Made by a program: the position numbers and the translations under genes. This document shows, one piece after another, positions 338-18,226 of a stretch of 32,158 nt of DNA. Where the stretch lies: the NCBI GenBank assembly GCA_938041655.1, contig CALISW010000256.1, forward strand, positions 1 through 32,158, in the 5' to 3' direction. The notes under the pieces were generated by a model. That model worked only from the letters and a program-made list of their open reading frames with translations, made no database searches and was not told the DNA's origin. The number at the start of each line of letters is the position of its first letter. Position 1 is the first letter of the stretch. This stretch comes from an uncultured Thiotrichales bacterium (GTDB lineage Bacteria; Pseudomonadota; Gammaproteobacteria; CAZUMV01).

Positions 338-784
338 TTGGCCTCAAGTAAGATAAAAAAGACAAAACTGCGTGTTGGCAGGACAGAATGGGCTGCCTTG
401 CCGGAGCTGGGTATTAACAAGATTAAGGCCAAGATTGATACTGGCGCTTGGACGTCTTCGTTGCATGCAATGGATATTGAGCCTTATAAAACGCGGTGGG
501 GTCTGTTTGTGCGTTTTAAAACTGTGCCGCTGTCACGTAACTCAATCTCGTGTCGAGCGAGAGTTGTAGATGAGCGTGAGGTGACCAGTTCTGTTGGTGA
601 ATCGGAGTTGCGTTATGTCATAGAAACAGACGTTGTATTCGGTGAGAAGAGTTTGCCGATTGAGGTTACTTTGTCGAATCGGTCAAACATGAAATATAGG
701 ATGTTGTTGGGGCGTGCAGCTATGAAAGGAAAAATAATTGTTGACCCAAACAAGAATGAGTTATTAGGTCTGCCGAAAGCGTAA
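338..784 (+). CDS. RimB-like protein of the 'putative ATP-dependent zinc protease' family (retropepsin-like DTGA motif); TTG start as given by the ORF track
   Basis: [32 protein letters not shown] motif; directly upstream of rimK. Start codon uncertain (TTG, weak RBS). Confidence 0.85.
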
Positions 785-794
785 GGATGATCAA

Positions 795-1706
795 ATGAAG
801 ATTGCAATTTTATCTCGAGACAAAAATTTATATTCAACACGTCGTTTGCGTGAAGCGGCTCTTGAGCGTGGTCACTATGTTCATGTGCTCGACCACTTGC
901 GCTGTTTTATGGATATCACATCAGAGAAGCCGAGTATTCATTATCAAGAGCGTGAATATGTTGGTACTGACTTTGATGCGGTTATACCAAGAATAGGAAC
1001 CTCGGTTACTTTTTATGGTTGTGCTGTGGTGCGTCAGTTTGAAGTGATGAATATTTATAGTGTTAATGAGTCGGTAGCGATCACACGTTCACGTGATAAG
1101 TTGCGTTCATTGCAGTTGTTGTCTCGTAAAGGTCTGGGTTTGCCGACTACGACTTTCGCCCACTCGCCGCATGACCTTGATCAGGTTATTGAGGAGGTGG
1201 GTGGTGCGCCTCTGGTCATCAAGTTATTAGAAGGTACGCAAGGTAAAGGTGTTGTACTTGCTGAGACTAAAAAAGCGGCCGAGAGTGTTATTCAGGCGTT
1301 CATGGAATTGAAAGCCGATATTCTGGTGCAGGAGTTTATTAAAGAAGCGAACGGTGAAGACATTCGTGCCTTTGTGGTGGGTAAGCGGGTTATCGCGGCG
1401 ATGAAGCGTACTGCTCCCGAGGGGGAATTTCGTTCTAACTTGCATCGTGGTGGTACGGCAGAGTTGGTCAAGCTCACGCCGCAAGAACGAGAGGCGGCAG
1501 TTAAATCGGCCCGCGCGATGGGCTTGAATATTGCCGGTGTTGATATGCTGCGTTCAGATCGTGGCCCCTTGATTATGGAGGTAAACTCTTCACCTGGTTT
1601 ACAAGGGATTGAATCGGCAACGGGTAAAGATGTTGCTGGTATGATCATTGAATTCATAGAAAAGAACGCTCGACCTTACAGGACTAAAACCAGTGGCAAA
1701 GGCTAA
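795..1706 (+). CDS. rimK: Ribosomal protein S6--L-glutamate ligase RimK (ATP-grasp)
   Basis: [22 protein letters not shown] start, ATP-grasp motifs ([34 protein letters not shown]). Confidence 0.95.
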
Positions 1707-2733
1707 GAATTTTAAAATAGGTGGTGAAACGGTTGCTCCCGGCACCACTAAAATTGTGCGGCTGGAATTACCGAAGCTGTACACCATGCGTGCCTCTCCG
1801 GAAATGTCGGTGCATGTAATTAATGGTGCGAAACCCGGTCCCAAAATGTTCATTTGTGCCGCTATTCACGGTGATGAACTGAACGGTGTTGAGATGATCC
1901 GTCAACTGTTATCAAAGCTCGATCCAGATGAGGTGAGTGGTACGCTGGTAGCGATTCCGGTGGTGAATATTTTTGGTATTGTGCAGTACTCGCGTTACTT
2001 GCCTGATGGTCGTGATTTGAATCGTTCCTTCCCGGGTTCTCGACGTGGTTCTCTGGCCTCACGTTTGGCATATGAGTTTTTCACCGAGATAGTCGAGCAG
2101 TGCGATTACGGTATTGATCTGCACACCGGAGGAGGGCACCGAGCCAACTTGCCTCAGATTCGTGCCAATCTTGATGATCCGGAGACCTTGCATTTGGCGA
2201 AAGCATTTGGTGTGCCGGTACTCATGAATTCAAAAGGAACTGACGGTACTTTGCGTGAAGCTGCATTAAAGGCTGATGTGAAGATACTTCTCTATGAAGC
2301 TGGCGCCGCACTTCGGTTTGATGAGTTTTCTATCAAAGCTGGCGTGCTGGGCATGCGATCCGTGATGCAATTGGTAAACATGTTACCTGGTGAACCTGAG
2401 TTAAAGTCTGAGCCCTATATCGCCAAAGCGTCACGTTGGGTGCGTGCTACCGAGAGTGGGATATTCCACAGTACGGTTGAAATGGGTGATCGGGTGGCGA
2501 AAAAAGGTGTAGTGGGTTACATCACTAATCCATCGGATTGTTTCACCGATGAGCGCCATGAGATTGCCTCACCTGCAGAGGGTGTAGTGATCGGTTTAAC
2601 CTTGATTCCACTAGTAAATGAAGGTGATGCGCTACTGCATATAGCGTTGTTTTCAGACAGCGAAGAAGTTGCCGAAGAGGTGGATGATTTTCATAGTGCT
2701 TTATTGACAGAAGATCACCCCGCGAAGGTGTGA
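1693..2733 (+). CDS. Succinylglutamate desuccinylase/aspartoacylase family (M14-like) protein; GTG start overlapping rimK by 14 bp
   Basis: Zn-binding motifs [10 protein letters not shown] and [17 protein letters not shown]; genomic link with rimK. Confidence 0.9.
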
Positions 2734-10101: not shown

Positions 10102-10704
10102 TTATAGCGAGTATTGAATGTTCTCCTGTTTGGTTGGTATTACTTTATTCGCCACGACTACGTAGCGTAAGGGGCCTCCTGCATTCAAAGTAAAAAATGG
10201 ATAGCAGGTAATTAAAATCAAATGCTCGTCATCGCGGGCTGTTATCTCTTTTGACACTCTGCTATCAACCACCGTCAATTCTGATACCTGATATTGGTGT
10301 ATTTTTTTATGTTGGTCTTCAAGAGAGATGATATCCCCATTTTGAATGTTTCTTATCTGTTTAAAATGAGTGTCTCGATGCCCGGCAATGATTACCGGGC
10401 CAGCTTCACCAGGGACTGAACTACTGGTGTCGTAGCCGGGCCCGAATGCCAGTGCCTCACCGTGCGTGCCCGACATCACCAGCAAGTTTTCGCTCTCGGC
10501 AAAAGAGAGTTTGGCAACAGGCCAGGTATCCGCCCACGGCCAGGGCTTGTGGTTATTCTGCTCCTGCTGGCTTTTGTTCCAGGCACTGTCAATCAGGCTG
10601 TAAGCGAGATTGGCTTTAATATGTATCCAAGAGCCATTGGCGAATAGTCCAACGGCAAATACCAGAATGATCAGCTCTAGATAAAAGGTTTTTCTCTTGC
10701 TCAT
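10102..10704 (-). CDS. Class GN-type (proteobacterial) sortase
   Basis: N-terminal TM helix, GHRDTHF (catalytic His), LILITCYPF (TLxTC-like Cys), LRYVVVA (Arg); 4 bp overlap with its VIT/VWA target gene. Confidence 0.92.
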   Translation of the reverse strand: MSKRKTFYLELIILVFAVGLFANGSWIHIKANLAYSLIDSAWNKSQQEQNNHKPWPWADTWPVAKLSFAESENLLVMSGTHGEALAFGPGYDTSSSVPGEAGPVIIAGHRDTHFKQIRNIQNGDIISLEDQHKKIHQYQVSELTVVDSRVSKEITARDDEHLILITCYPFFTLNAGGPLRYVVVANKVIPTKQENIQYSL

Positions 10705-10808
10705 GATCTTCTCCCAACCGGGCGCAGCAGGCTACGCAGGAATAACATCAACATCAAGCCTAGAGCGACCAGGATGTGTTGGTCTGCATTGGTAGCTGTT
10801 TGTGGGTA
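10701..10808 (-). other. C-terminal sortase recognition/sorting signal YPQTATNADQHILVALGLMLMLFLRSLLRPVGRRS*
   Basis: Tripartite organisation (PxTxT-like motif, hydrophobic stretch, basic tail); TAC of YPQTAT read at 10806-10808 on the reverse complement. Confidence 0.85.
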
Positions 10809-12674
10809 GTTAATTCTCATGGTATTACCAGCCGGCATCAGGTTCGCTACCTCGGCATCAAGATTATTCTCCGGGTTACTGTTAACCGGGGTTTTATCTA
10901 CCGCAACCATGCTGGTAAAGGGGGTGACTAATTGATGTAAAAGACCCACTGCGACGACTTTGGGTTTGATCAAGTCATCGCTAATACCGTCAATACGAGC
11001 TTCAAGATAGTCATCGATACTCGCTTTAGCCCAGATGATATGAGTACCCTGACTATTATCTTTAGCAGGAAGCTTCACAGTTTGTTGCCACAGTTCTTTA
11101 CCAAAACGACCGGTGATTTTTGCTTCACCGCCAGCTTGCGCAAGTTCTGCGGTCACTTGTAATGGCTGACCATGGTAGAGATCAGGTATTTGTTGCGGGT
11201 AGGAGATTGCTTTGCTACTTGCAGGCCAACTAACTGCAAGGTCTTGCAGCACGGGTCGTTCAAGTTTCTCAAACAGATTGTCCATGGTTTTCTTTACCTG
11301 GTTGAGATTGTCAATATAAGTGAAGGTACCGCGCCCATACTTCGCTGCTTTACGCATAAAGTGTGAGTTGGGGGCTGAGCCTATACCAATAGTAAAGAGA
11401 CGATCATTATCAATTCGTTCTTTGATCAAGCTGAATAGTCCCTGCTCATCACCAACGCTACCGTCAGTGATAAAAATAATCTGCTTGATAGTGTCTTGCA
11501 TGGCGGGTTGTTCAAATGCCTGGGTCAGTGCAGTGTATATGTTGGTACCACCGTCGGCGTTCAAGTTGTCAACTGCTTGTATGGCGCGGGTCAGGTTTAG
11601 GCTGGTGGCGAGTAGCGGCTCGGGATAAAACACGCGAGCGGTATCGTCAAATTCAATTACGTTAAAATATTGATTGGTGTCCAGTCGTTTTAATGCATTC
11701 TGCAAACTTTGGCGTGCCTGCAGTATTGAAATACCACTCATCGAACCGGATGTATCAATTACAAACACAATGGTTCTTGGTATGGCTTCACTACTAGCCG
11801 TTACTGGTGGAACTACCAGTAAATTGACGTATTGTTTGTCGGCATAACTCTCCGAAAAAGTGGCGATATGGGGTGAGCTTGACGGGTCAAGTTGCCAGCT
11901 AATAACCGCATCGCGATCCATAGATGCTTTGCCCTGGCGCAATGACACTTCGTAGCCCATGTCATGTTCCAGCCATTCAATATCGTGAGTGCTGCTTTGA
12001 ATGGTTGTGATGGGTAAGCCGGCGTTAATATTCATCTGTAAGGTGAGATTATCTCTGTCTTCACGCTTCATATGAGTCATGGGTGGGTTAATTAAATTCG
12101 CATCAACAATGTCAGTAAGAATAGTCTCCGCTTGTTTGCCGTTGAAACGAGGGGTCAGGGTAGTTGGCAGTCTGAGGCTAAAAGTTCCATCCTCGTAATG
12201 TACCTGGTCGTAATACACCAACTCGGTTTCTACCAGTGAACCTGCGGCTACGTTGGCGATCTCGGTGCTGAATAAATTTGCACGTTGACTGGTAACCAGG
12301 GCAGCTTGTTGTCCGTTAGCTTTGGCTGTCTGATAGATTTTCTTTGCTTCAGACTTTTCATGAACTTCAGATTCGATCAGTTTGTCATCGACACGTAAAC
12401 GATATTCATTGACGGCAGCGGTTTCTGGAAGCGGGAATAAGTATCTGCCGTTCATCCATTGATCACTGTTGTTGCGAAATTGCTGCCTGATCTTAACCTT
12501 GATCATAAGGCCGCTGACATCTACCTCCATTGAAGTGTTTTGACTCATACTTTGGTGAGTGATTGAGTTTTCGTTGTTGCTGAATACCATCTCACCAGTA
12601 TTTGTATCAGCATGAAGCTGAGTGCAAAGGATCAGTGAGGTCAGTATTACTAGTTGTTTGCTCAGTGTTTTCAT
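10701..12674 (-). CDS. VIT and VWA domain-containing sortase target protein (marine proteobacterial sortase target type)
   Basis: Signal peptide; VIT domain (GRYLFPLPETAAVNEYRL); VWA MIDAS (VIDTSGSMSG); C-terminal YPQTAT + TM + RPVGRRS. Confidence 0.93.
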   Translation of the reverse strand: MKTLSKQLVILTSLILCTQLHADTNTGEMVFSNNENSITHQSMSQNTSMEVDVSGLMIKVKIRQQFRNNSDQWMNGRYLFPLPETAAVNEYRLRVDDKLIESEVHEKSEAKKIYQTAKANGQQAALVTSQRANLFSTEIANVAAGSLVETELVYYDQVHYEDGTFSLRLPTTLTPRFNGKQAETILTDIVDANLINPPMTHMKREDRDNLTLQMNINAGLPITTIQSSTHDIEWLEHDMGYEVSLRQGKASMDRDAVISWQLDPSSSPHIATFSESYADKQYVNLLVVPPVTASSEAIPRTIVFVIDTSGSMSGISILQARQSLQNALKRLDTNQYFNVIEFDDTARVFYPEPLLATSLNLTRAIQAVDNLNADGGTNIYTALTQAFEQPAMQDTIKQIIFITDGSVGDEQGLFSLIKERIDNDRLFTIGIGSAPNSHFMRKAAKYGRGTFTYIDNLNQVKKTMDNLFEKLERPVLQDLAVSWPASSKAISYPQQIPDLYHGQPLQVTAELAQAGGEAKITGRFGKELWQQTVKLPAKDNSQGTHIIWAKASIDDYLEARIDGISDDLIKPKVVAVGLLHQLVTPFTSMVAVDKTPVNSNPENNLDAEVANLMPAGNTMRINYPQTATNADQHILVALGLMLMLFLRSLLRPVGRRS

Positions 12675-14017
12675 AAAGATTCCTTGTTAGTGCCAGAGTA
12701 AATCGGGGTTAAAGTGTCGAGCTTGTGCCAGTCAATTTTTCTGGTGAGGGTCATAACACTCGCCAGTCCTGCAAAAATGAGTACTGAGCCATAGAGCAGA
12801 GCATGATCCTCAACAAATAAAATTAGATAGCACGCCAGGTAGGTGAGCAGGAGCAAGAATAAAAAGAAGAGGCTCGCTTTTTTACCGGCGAAGGGCAGCA
12901 GGTAATAACCGATTAGCCCGCTTGAAGAAGCAGCAGCTATTAAGTAAGCAATGGAGAATCCTAAATGCTCAGATAACGATAGTAGTAATAAAAAGAATAT
13001 GGCGAGTGCCAGACCAACCAATGCATATTGGATCGGGTGTATTTTCAAACCTTTGAGTAATTCAAAAAGATAGAAGCCTGTAAACACCAGAATAATCATT
13101 AGAGCGCCATACTTGGTGCTGCGATTAACCAGTGAGTACTCGTCTACCGGGGTAAAAATATTGACCCCGAAGTTAAAATACTCAGGGTGATATTCGCGCT
13201 TGAGTTGATCAAGAATGACCGGTTTGGAGGAGAGGTTACTGTTGTAAGGGCTCACTTCCCAGTTGGCTTTAAACCCAGTTTCTTTGATGTCTCTCGTTAG
13301 TGGCAATAAGTCACCGGAGAAGCTCGGGTGTGGCCAGGTAGAGCTTACTTCGGTAGTTGCTTGTTGTGCATTGGGCGACATGTTAAATGACTCGGCACCA
13401 CGCAGTGAGAATTCATTGACGATGGTCAAGCCTGCGTTGCTGCGCAATGCTGACTCGCTCACCGGGGTGTGAAAACCTTGTAGTTGTGAGAGTTCTCGTG
13501 CGCCTGGTTCAGTTGCAACTGTTTCTTGATTGATCAGCGTGTTGATCGAACTTCCGTCTAAGCCGCGTGCATCCGATACGGCATTCACAAAGTAGGCAGA
13601 CTTGAATTCAAAGTTATCGGTGGATGAAAGTGTTTTGAGGAATTCATGTGTATCGAATTGACTAATGATGTTGACGTCAGAGGTGTAAACGGGAATCGAG
13701 TAAATCCCGCGTTTTCGCTCGCTCATATTTAACACACCGCTAAGTTCCGAGGTGGTCGGTTTGATGATTGCGGTGCGTTGGAATTTCCAGGCACTGGCTT
13801 GATTGTCTTTGCTTTTTACTGTGCCACTAACTTCATACTCAATGACCAGTATTGGGTCTTGAACAATCTGTGCACTCGCCCACGAGTTGATGATGTTCAT
13901 AGTGGCATCATGTTTATAACGAATGCGCTCGTGAACTGTGCCGCCAATCATGGTTAAGGGGATTAACAACAGTAGCGTTAAGAGCAGCAGAATCGCTGGT
14001 TTTTTCAAGCTATGCAT
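12671..14017 (-). CDS. creD: Inner membrane protein CreD family
   Basis: Periplasmic region VSGTVKSKD...RGIYSIPVYTSDV; FNFGVNIFTPVDEYSLVNRSTKYGALMIILVFTGFYLFELLKGLKIHPIQYALVGLALAIFFLLLLSLSEHLGF is the highly characteristic CreD signature. Confidence 0.95.
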   Translation of the reverse strand: MHSLKKPAILLLLTLLLLIPLTMIGGTVHERIRYKHDATMNIINSWASAQIVQDPILVIEYEVSGTVKSKDNQASAWKFQRTAIIKPTTSELSGVLNMSERKRGIYSIPVYTSDVNIISQFDTHEFLKTLSSTDNFEFKSAYFVNAVSDARGLDGSSINTLINQETVATEPGARELSQLQGFHTPVSESALRSNAGLTIVNEFSLRGAESFNMSPNAQQATTEVSSTWPHPSFSGDLLPLTRDIKETGFKANWEVSPYNSNLSSKPVILDQLKREYHPEYFNFGVNIFTPVDEYSLVNRSTKYGALMIILVFTGFYLFELLKGLKIHPIQYALVGLALAIFFLLLLSLSEHLGFSIAYLIAAASSSGLIGYYLLPFAGKKASLFFLFLLLLTYLACYLILFVEDHALLYGSVLIFAGLASVMTLTRKIDWHKLDTLTPIYSGTNKESL

Positions 14018-14030
14018 AATGTCTCCGGGG

Positions 14031-14312
14031 TTATCGTGTTTGGTGTAGTTGCATTAAATGGTCGATTACTTTTTTCAATAAGTCGTTTTGTCGCTTCAGC
14101 TCCCAGTTTTCTTTTTGGATAGCACGCGTCGCAATTTGATCGTGTTGTTTGTGCTTGGCTTTCAGCAGCAGGGTGTCTTCGACCCAGTCATTTAAAAGGA
14201 CTTTTGAAATGCCTGCTTTGCGTGCTACCTTTGCTACTTCAAGACCTTGTTCAATAACTTGCTTGACGATGCTCTGTCGAAACGAATCGATATATTTAAG
14301 TTCTGTTTGCAT
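14031..14312 (-). CDS. Small HTH protein resembling IS3-family transposase OrfA (helix-turn-helix plus coiled coil)
   Basis: FRQSIVKQVIEQGLEVAKVARKAGISKVLLNDWVED HTH plus a heptad-like C-terminus (ENWELKRQNDLLKKVIDHLMQL); GAGAGG Shine-Dalgarno ahead of ATG at 14312; 13 bp gap to creD. Confidence 0.75.
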   Translation of the reverse strand: MQTELKYIDSFRQSIVKQVIEQGLEVAKVARKAGISKVLLNDWVEDTLLLKAKHKQHDQIATRAIQKENWELKRQNDLLKKVIDHLMQLHQTR

Positions 14313-14458
14313 GTTGATACCTCTCAATGTGAGACTTATTGTGGAATTACAGTGTGTGGTTGATGTGTGTTTTGTATGTGTTTTATGCGAAAACAAGGTC
14401 CGTCACAGTGTGATTTTGTGTTTTAATATCGCTGCAAATACATAACTACGGAATATTC

Positions 14459-15241
14459 ATGCAAGAGCAGAAAGTCATTGATCACATTGTTGCGTGGTTG
14501 TCAGATTATTTAGGTCAGTCGGGTATGCAAGGCTTTGTTTCCGGTGTTTCGGGCGGCATAGATTCTGCGCTCACCTCAACGCTGTGCGCATTGACAGGCG
14601 CTAAAGTCACGGTGCTTTCGATGCCTATCCTACAAGCAGAGGACCAACACTCTTTGTCGCAACAACATATGCAATGGTTGGTTGACAAGTTTGATAATGT
14701 GGAACAAGAAACTATTGATTTAACGCCTGCCTTTAAAAGTATCCAGGCGACATTGCCCGAGGATATACAGGACCCGTTGACCATGGCGAATACGCGCTCA
14801 CGACTGCGTATGTTGACGCTGTATGCCTATGCCGGTAACCATAAAAAGCTGGTAGCAGGTACTGGCAACAAGGTTGAAGATTTCGGTGTGGGTTTCTACA
14901 CCAAGTATGGTGATGGTGGGGTGGATTTGTCGCCCATTGCTGATCTGATGAAGTCTGAAGTCTATGCTTTGGCGAAGCACCTTGATGTATTGCAAGGAAT
15001 TCAGGATGCGGCTCCGACTGATGGTTTGTGGGATGACGAGCGTACTGATGAAAGCCAGATCGGAGTTAGTTACGATGAGTTGGAGTGGGCCATGAAGTTT
15101 CTTGCTACTGGTGCCAGCCAAGATGAGCTTTCAGAGCAAGAGCAGCATGTGATTGCTACCTATCTGAAGTTCAATACAGCGAACAAGCACAAAATGCTGG
15201 AAATACCAGTGTGTGAAATCCCAACTGGCTTATTAGATTGA
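14459..15241 (+). CDS. nadE: NH3-dependent NAD(+) synthetase
   Basis: SGVSGGIDSALTSTLC PP-loop; NTRSRLRMLTLYAYAG; LVAGTGNKVEDFGVGFYTKYGDGGVDLSPIADLMKSEV. Confidence 0.97.
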   Translation: MQEQKVIDHIVAWLSDYLGQSGMQGFVSGVSGGIDSALTSTLCALTGAKVTVLSMPILQAEDQHSLSQQHMQWLVDKFDNVEQETIDLTPAFKSIQATLPEDIQDPLTMANTRSRLRMLTLYAYAGNHKKLVAGTGNKVEDFGVGFYTKYGDGGVDLSPIADLMKSEVYALAKHLDVLQGIQDAAPTDGLWDDERTDESQIGVSYDELEWAMKFLATGASQDELSEQEQHVIATYLKFNTANKHKMLEIPVCEIPTGLLD

Positions 15242-16702
15242 TTAGTTGCAGGTAGTCGCTTGTAGTAAAGGCCAACTAATTGAAGCAGAGGTGCCTTGGC
15301 CCGCTCTGTTTTTCAATTCAGCTTTCCCTTTATGAAGTTTCATGACCTCATTGACGAAACTCAGCCCCAATCCAGTGCTGCGTTGTTGATTGTCAGGGCG
15401 TGGTAAAGAATAAAAGCGTTCAAATATTTTTTCTTGAGCGTAATCAGGTATTCCAGGTCCGTTATCATCAATGCTTATAGTGTATTGATCATTTTCCATT
15501 AGTGAGCAAATGCTGATACTGCTGCCGCTTGGTGAAAATTCAATCGCATTATCGAGCAAGTTGGCAATCGCCTGTTCGAGTAAGACACTGTCACCGGTAA
15601 TGGTCTGTTGCTCCAGTGCCTCGGTTTTGATGCTGATCTCGAGAGTCTCCAGTCTTTTGCTGCGGTCTTTGACTAAACGAGTGATTATGGTCGGAAGATC
15701 AATCTCCTGAATGTTATCCAGCTCGCGTTGTCTTTCAACGCTGGCCAGGTTTAGCATGCGCTCTACTAACAGGTTCATCCGCTCAGATGACTGGCTGATG
15801 TTGTTGGCAAGTTTTGATTGTTGCTGCGGGTCTTTGTTCTCACTGAGTAGTTCTGCAGAAGCGCTCAGGCTGGTGAGAGGGGATTTAAGCTCATGGGCAA
15901 CCGAGTGTAGATAGTTCTCGATATACTCTTTATCTTCCAGTTCAACTTTCATGCGTTGCATTGCATCTGCCAGCTTGGCAAACTCGCTTTCTCGCAACCT
16001 CGGGGCAGGCACTTCCTGTCGTGAACCAAGTAAGTCAGCATAGTTACCCAGCTTGCGCATCGACCGGCTCAACCACCACGTCATAAACATACTGAAAAAC
16101 ACCATTGCACCTACAACAAATAAAACAAAGCGCTGCATTTGCTCTGTGGCGCTATCCATAAAAGGTTCAAGGTAGGCCAGACCTTTGGAAACCGTCACTA
16201 CGCCCACAATTTCATTTTGATGAATTACCGGTGCACCTATATAAAGCGCTTTAAGCGGGTCATCTTCGAGTTGGTCTGAAATCTCATCAATTATGCTGGT
16301 GCGCGCACCATAGTCACCTTTTAGAGTTAAAATCACGTCATTCCATCTAGAAAAATCTTCACCTTCGCTTTGCCCGGTAGAGTCATACAGTACCTGGCCG
16401 TTTTTGTCGGTTATATAGACTTGCATGTCTGGCTTGGTTTTCATGACTGAATAGATTTCAGCATTAAGACGACGCTCGAGATAGGCCGGGATTAAGTTGT
16501 GAATCTGGTGTAATTGTATTTCGCCTTCAATGACATTCTGGCTGACCAGCTCGGCGATAAAGTTAGCCGAGTCGACCATGACTTCTTCGGCTGAGGTTCG
16601 GACACTGTCGTCCAACGTCTTGAGTGATTTATCCAGAATGAACCAGGCAATGATACTGGTGATAAAGAAAAAGAATAAGAACAGGCGGAGTACAAAGCTC
16701 AT
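15242..16702 (-). CDS. creC: Two-component sensor histidine kinase CreC
   Basis: HAMP/kinase architecture; SVAHELKSPLTSLSASAELL H-box, N-box LEQAIANLLDNAIEF, DNGPGIP; AEIYSVMKTKPDMQVYITDKNGQVLYDSTG sensor region typical of CreC. Confidence 0.92.
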   Translation of the reverse strand: MSFVLRLFLFFFFITSIIAWFILDKSLKTLDDSVRTSAEEVMVDSANFIAELVSQNVIEGEIQLHQIHNLIPAYLERRLNAEIYSVMKTKPDMQVYITDKNGQVLYDSTGQSEGEDFSRWNDVILTLKGDYGARTSIIDEISDQLEDDPLKALYIGAPVIHQNEIVGVVTVSKGLAYLEPFMDSATEQMQRFVLFVVGAMVFFSMFMTWWLSRSMRKLGNYADLLGSRQEVPAPRLRESEFAKLADAMQRMKVELEDKEYIENYLHSVAHELKSPLTSLSASAELLSENKDPQQQSKLANNISQSSERMNLLVERMLNLASVERQRELDNIQEIDLPTIITRLVKDRSKRLETLEISIKTEALEQQTITGDSVLLEQAIANLLDNAIEFSPSGSSISICSLMENDQYTISIDDNGPGIPDYAQEKIFERFYSLPRPDNQQRSTGLGLSFVNEVMKLHKGKAELKNRAGQGTSASISWPLLQATTCN

Positions 16703-17379
16703 GTGCTGATACTGTAGCCGATTCCTCGGTGGGTATTAATTTGATCTGAGCCAGCGTCAATTTCTTTTAACTTGGCGCGTAGGGATTTTATGTGGGTGTC
16801 GATAGTTCGTTCTTCTGAGGGATGATTGGCATCCCAGATGATTTCCAGAAGTTGGGTACGGGTAAAGACCCGGTTGGGTTGACTGAGCATGCCGCTTAAC
16901 AATTTATATTCGGCTAAGGTTAGATCCAGTGCCTGTTGTTGAAAGCTGATTTTGGCCTGTTGGTCATTAACTTCGAACTTTTTTGAGTTTGAATCACTCT
17001 TTGTTTCCGGGCTGTTGTTGGTTCTGCGCAGTACCGCTTTAATGCGCGCCATCAACTCACGTGGGCTAAAGGGTTTGGTGATGTAGTCATCGGCGCCAAT
17101 CTCAAGCCCAACCACCCGATCAATTTCCTCACCACGCGCGGTTAGAAAGATGACGGGTGTATTGTGTTGTTGGCGAATCAGTTTAAGTAACTCAAATCCG
17201 CTCATGTCAGGCAGTCCAACATCGAGCACAATCAGATTGGGGGATACTTTTTCTAAATGATCTAGGGCTGCTTCACCAGTAGCTGTCCAGTCACAAGAGT
17301 AGGATTCGTTCTCAATGGCAATTTTTATCGTTTCAGCAATATTGGCTTCGTCTTCTACTACCAGTATGCGGTCGTTCAT
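16699..17379 (-). CDS. creB: Two-component response regulator CreB (OmpR/PhoB family)
   Basis: Receiver domain (ILVVEDEANIAETI, LDVGLPDMSGFELL, GADDYITKPFSPRELMARIKAVLRR) plus winged-helix C-terminus; 4 bp overlap with creC. Confidence 0.92.
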   Translation of the reverse strand: MNDRILVVEDEANIAETIKIAIENESYSCDWTATGEAALDHLEKVSPNLIVLDVGLPDMSGFELLKLIRQQHNTPVIFLTARGEEIDRVVGLEIGADDYITKPFSPRELMARIKAVLRRTNNSPETKSDSNSKKFEVNDQQAKISFQQQALDLTLAEYKLLSGMLSQPNRVFTRTQLLEIIWDANHPSEERTIDTHIKSLRAKLKEIDAGSDQINTHRGIGYSIST

Positions 17380-17386
17380 TTTTTAC

Positions 17387-18226
17387 TTACGCCTCAATCC
17401 AGTCTTTGACAAACTGATGTGCGACTCTACCACTGCGCGAACCACGATGAATGCTGAAGCGCATCGCAGCTACACTAAGCTCCTCTTCATTGCTAATTTG
17501 CACATGATAATGATCAAGCCAGTGGTTAACGATGTTCAAATACTCAACCTGCTTTAGCGGATGAAAAGAAAGCCACAAGCCAAAGCGTTCTGCCAACGAA
17601 ATTTTTTCTTCTACCGCATCACTATGGTGAATCTCATTATCAACCATACGAGTGTCCTGATTGTCTCGCATGGATTCTGGTAACAGGTGTCGCCGGTTAG
17701 AGGTGGCATAGACAAGCACATTATTCGGCCTGGCGGCGACTGAGCCATCCAGAGCAGCCTTCAATGCTTTATAGCTGGCATCATTTTCTTCGAAAGAGAG
17801 GTCGTCGCAGAATAAAATAAAGTGCTCGGGTCTCTCACCGAGACGTTCGGTTAATTCACTGAAGTGAATTAAGGAATCTTTGTCTACTTCGATAATGCGC
17901 AAGCCTTTGTCTGAATATTCATTGAGTAAGGCTTTAATCAGTGATGATTTTCCGGTGCCGCGCGCTCCCCAGAGCAAAACATCATTGGCAGGTTTGCCGT
18001 TAAGAAACTTGACGGTGTTCTTAACCAGTTGCTGCTTTTGCTTATCGACATGTAGCAAGTCATCCAGGCGAATCGGGTCAATCTTCTTTACTCGGTGTAA
18101 TTGCCCCTGATTGATCCATTGAAAGGCTAAGCCATCCCAATCAGTAGCTTCCATCGTCGGGAACTGACGCTCCAGGCTTGCAGCGATAGAATCCAGCTTG
18201 TTGAATAGTTGATCTAAATCACTCAT
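17387..18226 (-). CDS. DUF815 family AAA+ ATPase
   Basis: WGARGTGKSSLIKALLNEY Walker A, FCDDLSFEE, YATSNRRHLLPESMRDN sensor region. Confidence 0.9.
   Translation of the reverse strand: MSDLDQLFNKLDSIAASLERQFPTMEATDWDGLAFQWINQGQLHRVKKIDPIRLDDLLHVDKQKQQLVKNTVKFLNGKPANDVLLWGARGTGKSSLIKALLNEYSDKGLRIIEVDKDSLIHFSELTERLGERPEHFILFCDDLSFEENDASYKALKAALDGSVAARPNNVLVYATSNRRHLLPESMRDNQDTRMVDNEIHHSDAVEEKISLAERFGLWLSFHPLKQVEYLNIVNHWLDHYHVQISNEEELSVAAMRFSIHRGSRSGRVAHQFVKDWIEA

What the first reader, a model, noticed from the sequence alone, without database searches (positions are those of the whole stretch)
10102..14312. Four-gene operon: HTH - CreD - VIT/VWA protein - sortase, a candidate surface-display envelope-stress module
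The minus-strand genes overlap by 4 bp (creD/VIT-VWA and VIT-VWA/sortase) and sit 13 bp apart (HTH/creD), so they are probably co-transcribed. Established: class GN sortases in Proteobacteria pair with a single VIT/VWA target. Seen here: CreD, the CreBC-regulated inner-membrane protein, forms part of the same unit, and creBC lie just beyond nadE. Inference: CreBC and/or the HTH protein control a dedicated sortase-anchored surface protein, linking Cre signalling with envelope protein sorting.
Basis: partly seen in the sequence, partly recalled or inferred. Interest (0 to 1): 0.62.

Follow-up and report, generated by a model that had tools for sequence, protein, structure and literature searches.

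The report
CreBC-linked Gram-negative sortase operon
This bacterium keeps its single sortase (an enzyme that attaches proteins to the cell envelope) and that sortase's target in one operon with the envelope protein CreD, behind what looks like a binding site for the CreBC two-component regulator; related sortase operons elsewhere carry the same kind of site, which suggests that CreBC controls a group of Gram-negative sortases whose role is unknown.

Summary
The operon is real: HTH, creD, VIT/VWA target and class GN sortase, with +13, -4 and -4 bp junctions, conserved in a sister species. The HTH gene is an orphan IS3-OrfA-like gene under purifying selection; its role is unknown. The creD-sortase fusion itself is local: none of about 140 other GN-sortase loci has creD nearby.

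The Cre-sortase link, however, recurs. True CreBC (not the usual PdsSR pair) lies beside target-sortase genes in about nine families, including all 15 sortase-bearing Pseudomonadaceae among 249 sampled, none of which carries creD. A half-site model trained only on creD promoters of genomes without a detected sortase finds a triple direct repeat (period 11, NNCACA, about -70) upstream of these target genes (median score 15.0, against 1.4 for PdsSR-linked promoters). The same repeat sits upstream of the window's operon; its strict pattern occurs once in the 2.9 Mb genome. CreB's recognition helix is conserved.

Best reading: a CreB-controlled operon joining the classical Cre effector (CreD) with a sortase and its substrate, a CreBC-wired variant of the dedicated proteobacterial sortase system. 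Binding, expression and anchoring remain untested. No earlier report of this wiring was found in the open literature searched.

The parts
14355..14382 (-). Putative CreB box: AACACA-N5-AACACA-N5-ACCACA, period 11, ending 42 bp before the hth start codon
   Evidence: Strict pattern unique in the genome; half-site matrix from creD promoters scores it second in the whole window; half-sites identical in the sister species, box 27/28 against flanks 86/105
14031..14312 (-). hth: 93-aa orphan IS3-OrfA-like HTH protein, first gene of the operon
   Evidence: PF01527 45.5 bits; 13 bp to creD, no orfB; no inverted repeats found around it; dN/dS 0.063 against the sister species
12671..14017 (-). creD, inner membrane protein
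   Evidence: NF008712 429 bits, PF06123 417 bits
10701..12674 (-). VIT/VWA sortase target protein (657 aa)
   Evidence: TIGR03788 658 bits; VIT and VWA domains; relatives of known structure: PARP4 and inter-alpha-trypsin inhibitor heavy chains
10794..10808 (-). YPQTA sorting motif of the target, followed by a hydrophobic stretch and a basic tail
   Evidence: Read from the translation; YPQTA/S, FPATA, LPQTA and similar motifs at the same place in most relatives
10102..10704 (-). Class GN sortase (200 aa) with His109, Cys167 and Arg180
   Evidence: TIGR03784 202.8 bits; the three residues invariant in 16 sequences
15242..16702 (-). creC, sensor histidine kinase
   Evidence: NF008312 538 bits; PdsS model TIGR03785 far below its cut-off
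16699..17379 (-). creB, response regulator
   Evidence: NF008296 302 bits; recognition helix as in E. coli CreB, unlike PdsR
14459..15241 (+). nadE, divergent neighbour between the operon and creBC; probably not part of the system
   Evidence: TIGR00552 180.6 bits

Best explanation
The four genes form one CreB-controlled operon. CreC senses an envelope or peptidoglycan disturbance (in P. aeruginosa loss of PBP4 activates CreBC) and phosphorylates CreB. CreB binds the triple period-11 repeat at 14355-14382 and switches on hth-creD-VIT/VWA-sortase. CreD goes to the inner membrane; the sortase cleaves the VIT/VWA protein at its YPQTA signal and anchors it in the envelope. The unit is a CreBC-wired variant of the dedicated proteobacterial sortase system, in which CreBC takes the place of PdsSR, and in this genus the classical Cre effector creD has been joined to the same transcript. 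Shown here by sequence: gene order, family membership, recurrent CreBC linkage, the shared repeat, conserved catalytic and recognition residues. Inferred: CreB binding, activation, co-transcription, sorting and anchoring.
For: Operon junctions and their conservation. CreBC beside vwa-srt in about nine families, single-copy CreC in each genome searched. CACA pairs at spacing 11 upstream of 23/25 CreBC-linked units against 3/105 others. Half-site matrix trained only on creD promoters of sortase-free genomes separates CreBC-linked from PdsSR-linked target promoters, medians 15.0 and 1.4, and hits the window's operon. Exact cre-tag at about -77 of E. coli creD. In G144 and G355, where creD lies far from the sortase, both promoters carry the repeat. 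CreB recognition helix conserved. Own genome has no PdsS over cut-off.
Against: The window's repeat does not match the E. coli tag TTCACN6TTCAC, and its CA-rich stretch scores higher at spacing 13 than at 11. Few independent PdsSR/CreBC switches (4 on the best tree), so the cross-locus P values overstate independence. No expression or binding data. CreBC represses creD in S. maltophilia (PMC4689548), so the sign of control is not certain.
Confidence: 0.72

Rival explanations
1. Chance juxtaposition: creD happens to lie upstream of an ordinary GN sortase cassette in this genus, with no shared control by CreBC.
For: creD is next to a GN sortase only in this genus; a draft genome can hold odd neighbours.
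Against: 4-bp overlapping starts conserved in two species; CreBC-sortase linkage recurs in other families with the same repeat in front.
Confidence: 0.13
2. The repeat is bound by another regulator (an OmpR-family protein, or a regulator of nadE), and CreBC linkage is incidental.
For: Period-11 direct repeats are usual for OmpR/PhoB-family regulators (own knowledge); hth and nadE share one 146-bp intergenic stretch.
Against: The repeat is directional (0 of 25 on the reverse strand), sits where the cre-tag sits in E. coli and in Pseudomonas creD promoters, and is rare at PdsSR-linked promoters.
Confidence: 0.08
3. The HTH protein is the local regulator of the operon (autoregulation by a domesticated IS3 OrfA protein).
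For: First gene of the operon, purifying selection, no transposase partner.
Against: Absent from every other sortase or creD locus examined outside the genus; OrfA-type proteins are not known as operon regulators outside their elements (own knowledge).
Confidence: 0.07

Closest known systems
Proteobacterial dedicated sortase system (class GN sortase TIGR03784, target TIGR03788, PdsS TIGR03785, PdsR TIGR03787)
   Same: Same sortase and VIT/VWA target families, overlapping genes, a two-component system nearby
   Different: CreBC instead of PdsSR; creD and hth in the same operon; a different promoter repeat
creABCD / creBCD of E. coli, Pseudomonas, Stenotrophomonas
   Same: CreB, CreC and CreD of the equivalog families; direct-repeat site upstream of creD at about -80
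   Different: creD leads into a sortase operon; nadE (opposite strand) and hth separate creBC from creD; half-sites are AACACA/ACCACA instead of TTCACN
vwa-srt-creB-creC units of Halopseudomonas and Alcanivorax (found here)
   Same: CreBC plus VIT/VWA target plus GN sortase, same kind of repeat in front
   Different: No creD in the 15 Pseudomonadaceae genomes; creBC follow the sortase directly

Membership tests
Class GN sortase (TIGR03784) | Score over the curated cut-off; catalytic His, Cys, Arg | tested here: met
   202.8 bits against 158.25; residues invariant
Class GN sortase (TIGR03784) | Transpeptidase activity on the target's sorting signal | not testable with these tools
   Needs biochemistry
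Marine proteobacterial sortase target (TIGR03788) | VIT and VWA domains, C-terminal LPxTA-like motif, hydrophobic stretch, basic tail, next to the sortase | tested here: met
   657.9 bits against 551.65; YPQTA signal
Dedicated sortase system with PdsSR | PdsS (TIGR03785) and PdsR (TIGR03787) over cut-off, next to the sortase | tested here: not met
   No PdsS over the cut-off in the genome, which is about 85% complete; the window's pair scores 126 and 150 bits against cut-offs 612 and 336
CreBC-CreD system | CreB, CreC, CreD over equivalog cut-offs | tested here: met
   CreC single copy at E up to 1e-80
CreBC-CreD system | Canonical cre/blr-tag TTCACN6TTCAC in the regulated promoter | tested here: not met
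   No site within 1 mismatch in front of the operon, and scan with 2 mismatches at chance level; a variant triple repeat is present instead
CreBC-CreD system | creB-dependent expression | not testable with these tools
   Needs mutants or footprints
IS3 insertion (for hth) | orfB transposase and terminal inverted repeats | tested here: not met
   creD begins 13 bp after hth; no inverted repeats in 13900-14520

The most novel reading that the evidence does not exclude
CreBC is a cell-wall-damage sensor with two partly interchangeable envelope effectors: CreD, or a VIT/VWA protein anchored by its own sortase. Some lineages (Halopseudomonas) have the sortase unit and no creD, some keep both behind separate boxes, and this genus joined both in one operon. 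The unknown task of these Gram-negative sortases would then be an envelope-maintenance function parallel to that of CreD.
Probability: 0.4. Interest if true: 0.75.

Novelty: new variant of a known kind. Interest (0 to 1): 0.6.

Why it matters
The role of Gram-negative sortases is stated to be unknown (PMC10581121), and the function of CreD is unsettled. A shared, recognisable regulator site suggests an input signal (envelope or peptidoglycan disturbance through CreBC) and makes a direct test possible in culturable Halopseudomonas. It also shows that GN sortase units come with one of at least two alternative two-component systems.

Tried and rejected
CreBC as mislabelled PdsSR: rejected by family scores. 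creD as a usual companion of GN sortases: rejected (0 of about 140 loci), although genome-level co-occurrence in the class is above independence (14 observed, about 5 expected; Fisher 5e-5, not corrected for phylogeny). Strict cre-tag scan in the window with 2 mismatches: uninformative (37 hits, 37 expected). Other box-like sites in G000 (C103) and G002 (C236) do not face a gene start and look like chance. hth as a recent copy of the genome's other PF01527 gene: that one (C113) lies beside an IS3-type orfB and looks dissimilar on inspection. CreD fold by AlphaFold2 without an alignment: mean pLDDT 39.6, unusable; CreD has no relative among solved structures by sequence. Sigma-70 scan: nothing on the operon strand in front of the operon. 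Phylogenetically independent pairs: too few to test.

Full report
OBSERVATION. The four minus-strand genes are at the stated coordinates, with 4-bp overlaps between creD/VIT-VWA and VIT-VWA/sortase and 13 bp between HTH and creD. NCBIfam and Pfam confirm class GN sortase, its marine proteobacterial target, CreD, CreB and CreC, all over curated cut-offs; the HTH protein matches the transposase HTH family PF01527. The window is an entire contig of a draft genome of 2.93 Mb, about 85% complete, with one GN sortase, one CreD and one CreC detected. A sister species (G001) has the same genes in the same order at 86-94% protein identity, and the operon genes are under strong purifying selection (dN/dS 0.04-0.10, hth 0.063).

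HOW GENERAL IS creD NEXT TO A SORTASE? Not general. In 369 genomes of the class, 55 have a GN sortase, 33 a CreD and 14 both (one CreD match is weak), but by coordinates the two are neighbours only in this genus. Among 80 GN sortase loci taken from GTDB contigs and 60 further loci with flanks of up to about 9.5 kb (a few are the same contigs, and some flanks are cut by contig ends), a CreD profile finds none. In the next genus of the same family, creB, creC and creD lie on one contig and VIT/VWA-sortase on another, each with unrelated DNA where the junction would be.

HOW GENERAL IS CreBC NEXT TO A SORTASE? Recurrent. Most GN sortases have the known PdsSR pair next to them. But Halopseudomonas, P. 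abyssi and Alcanivorax have vwa-srt-creB-creC; the Halopseudomonas CreB and CreC pass the equivalog cut-offs. In Pseudomonadaceae, 15 of 249 sampled genomes have a GN sortase, and all 15 have this arrangement. In the class survey CreBC also flank vwa-srt in six further families (G017, G144, G191/G295, G211, G234, G355; in G234 the contig ends after creB, and in G144 about 2.3 kb with other genes lie between), with a single CreC in each genome searched. In the Pseudomonadaceae sample creD occurs in 103 genomes and in none of the 15 sortase-bearing ones (Fisher 0.0003; this may be one evolutionary event). A tree of CreB+CreC puts the sortase-linked pairs and the window's in one supported branch, with three creD-linked pairs, apart from the Pseudomonas creBCD pairs; the window groups with G002 and with G144 and G355, which have CreBC beside the sortase and creD elsewhere (quick tree, some long branches).

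A SHARED SITE. Upstream of hth lies AACACA-N5-AACACA-N5-ACCACA on the operon strand. I noticed it beside a similar repeat in Halopseudomonas, so the pattern itself is post hoc; three controls follow. (a) The strict pattern occurs once in 2.93 Mb, here, and its reversed control not at all; with a looser third gap each of seven genomes has 1-6 sites, one of them at the sortase or creD promoter. (b) Across loci, CACA pairs at spacing 11 occur in 23 of 25 CreBC-linked units and in 3 of 105 others, never on the reverse strand of the former; the triple in 22 against a shuffle mean of 0.06. (c) A half-site matrix was trained only on 26 creD promoters of genomes with creBC and no GN sortase detected (consensus about TCCACA-N5-TCCACA-N5-CCCATA near -80). 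Applied to the sortase-target promoters it gives median 15.0 for CreBC-linked, 1.4 for PdsSR-linked and 2.4 for promoters with neither (Mann-Whitney 5e-13 for the first two, not corrected for kinship), and 12.6-13.5 for the window's operon, second best of all positions in the window. E. coli K-12 has its exact cre-tag at about -77 from the creD start, the distance seen here; that tag is the known signature of the Cre regulon (PMC3660660). The region that holds the recognition helix of CreB is nearly unchanged between E. coli, window and sortase-linked CreB, and differs in PdsR. Genomes with both genes apart (G144, G355) carry the repeat at both promoters.

LIMITS. In the window's promoter itself the CA-rich stretch scores higher at spacing 13 than at 11, so its register rests on the comparison with relatives and on conservation in the sister species (27/28 bases in the box, 86/105 in the flanks). 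The number of independent switches between PdsSR and CreBC is small (4 on the best VIT/VWA tree). The box lies between divergent hth and nadE. All regulation is inferred.

MECHANISM. CreBC is activated by loss of PBP4 in P. aeruginosa and drives creD there (PMC2654508); loss of CreD in S. maltophilia damages the envelope, though CreBC represses creD in that species (PMC4689548). The simplest reading is that CreB acts on this operon when the envelope is disturbed, making CreD together with the VIT/VWA protein and the sortase that anchors it. VIT/VWA proteins of this family with other C-terminal sorting signals are described (PMC3237569), so the protein may be useful in the envelope whatever anchors it. 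The orphan HTH protein sits between site and creD; its conservation suggests a function, perhaps fine tuning, but nothing ties it to the sortase elsewhere.

NOVELTY. No paper in the searched open library links CreBC or CreD with sortases (most subscription literature is not held). The parts are known; the wiring is a new variant of the dedicated sortase system and of the Cre regulon.

Noticed in passing
vwa promoters of the 77 PdsSR-linked loci: CACA pairs at spacing 10 (not 11) occur in 19 of 77: a possible PdsR box.
   Followed up: no
window 17387-18226; L089, L092, L096, L101 and other Marinobacter loci: A DUF815 AAA-ATPase gene lies 7 bp from creB here, and a DUF815 gene also lies near pdsS in Marinobacter sortase loci.
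   Followed up: no
G121, G128, G168, G178, G290, G301, G366: These genomes have CreD and a GN sortase but no CreC at E up to 1e-80: CreD without its usual sensor.
   Followed up: no
window 14031-14312: Orphan IS3-OrfA-like gene at the head of a conserved operon, dN/dS 0.063 between two species: a possible domesticated transposon protein.
   Followed up: partly
window 338-2733: Putative zinc protease, RimK-like ATP-grasp and AstE/AspA-type genes in a row; homologues of all three also lie in a row about 5 kb downstream of the sortase in G095 (L210).
   Followed up: no
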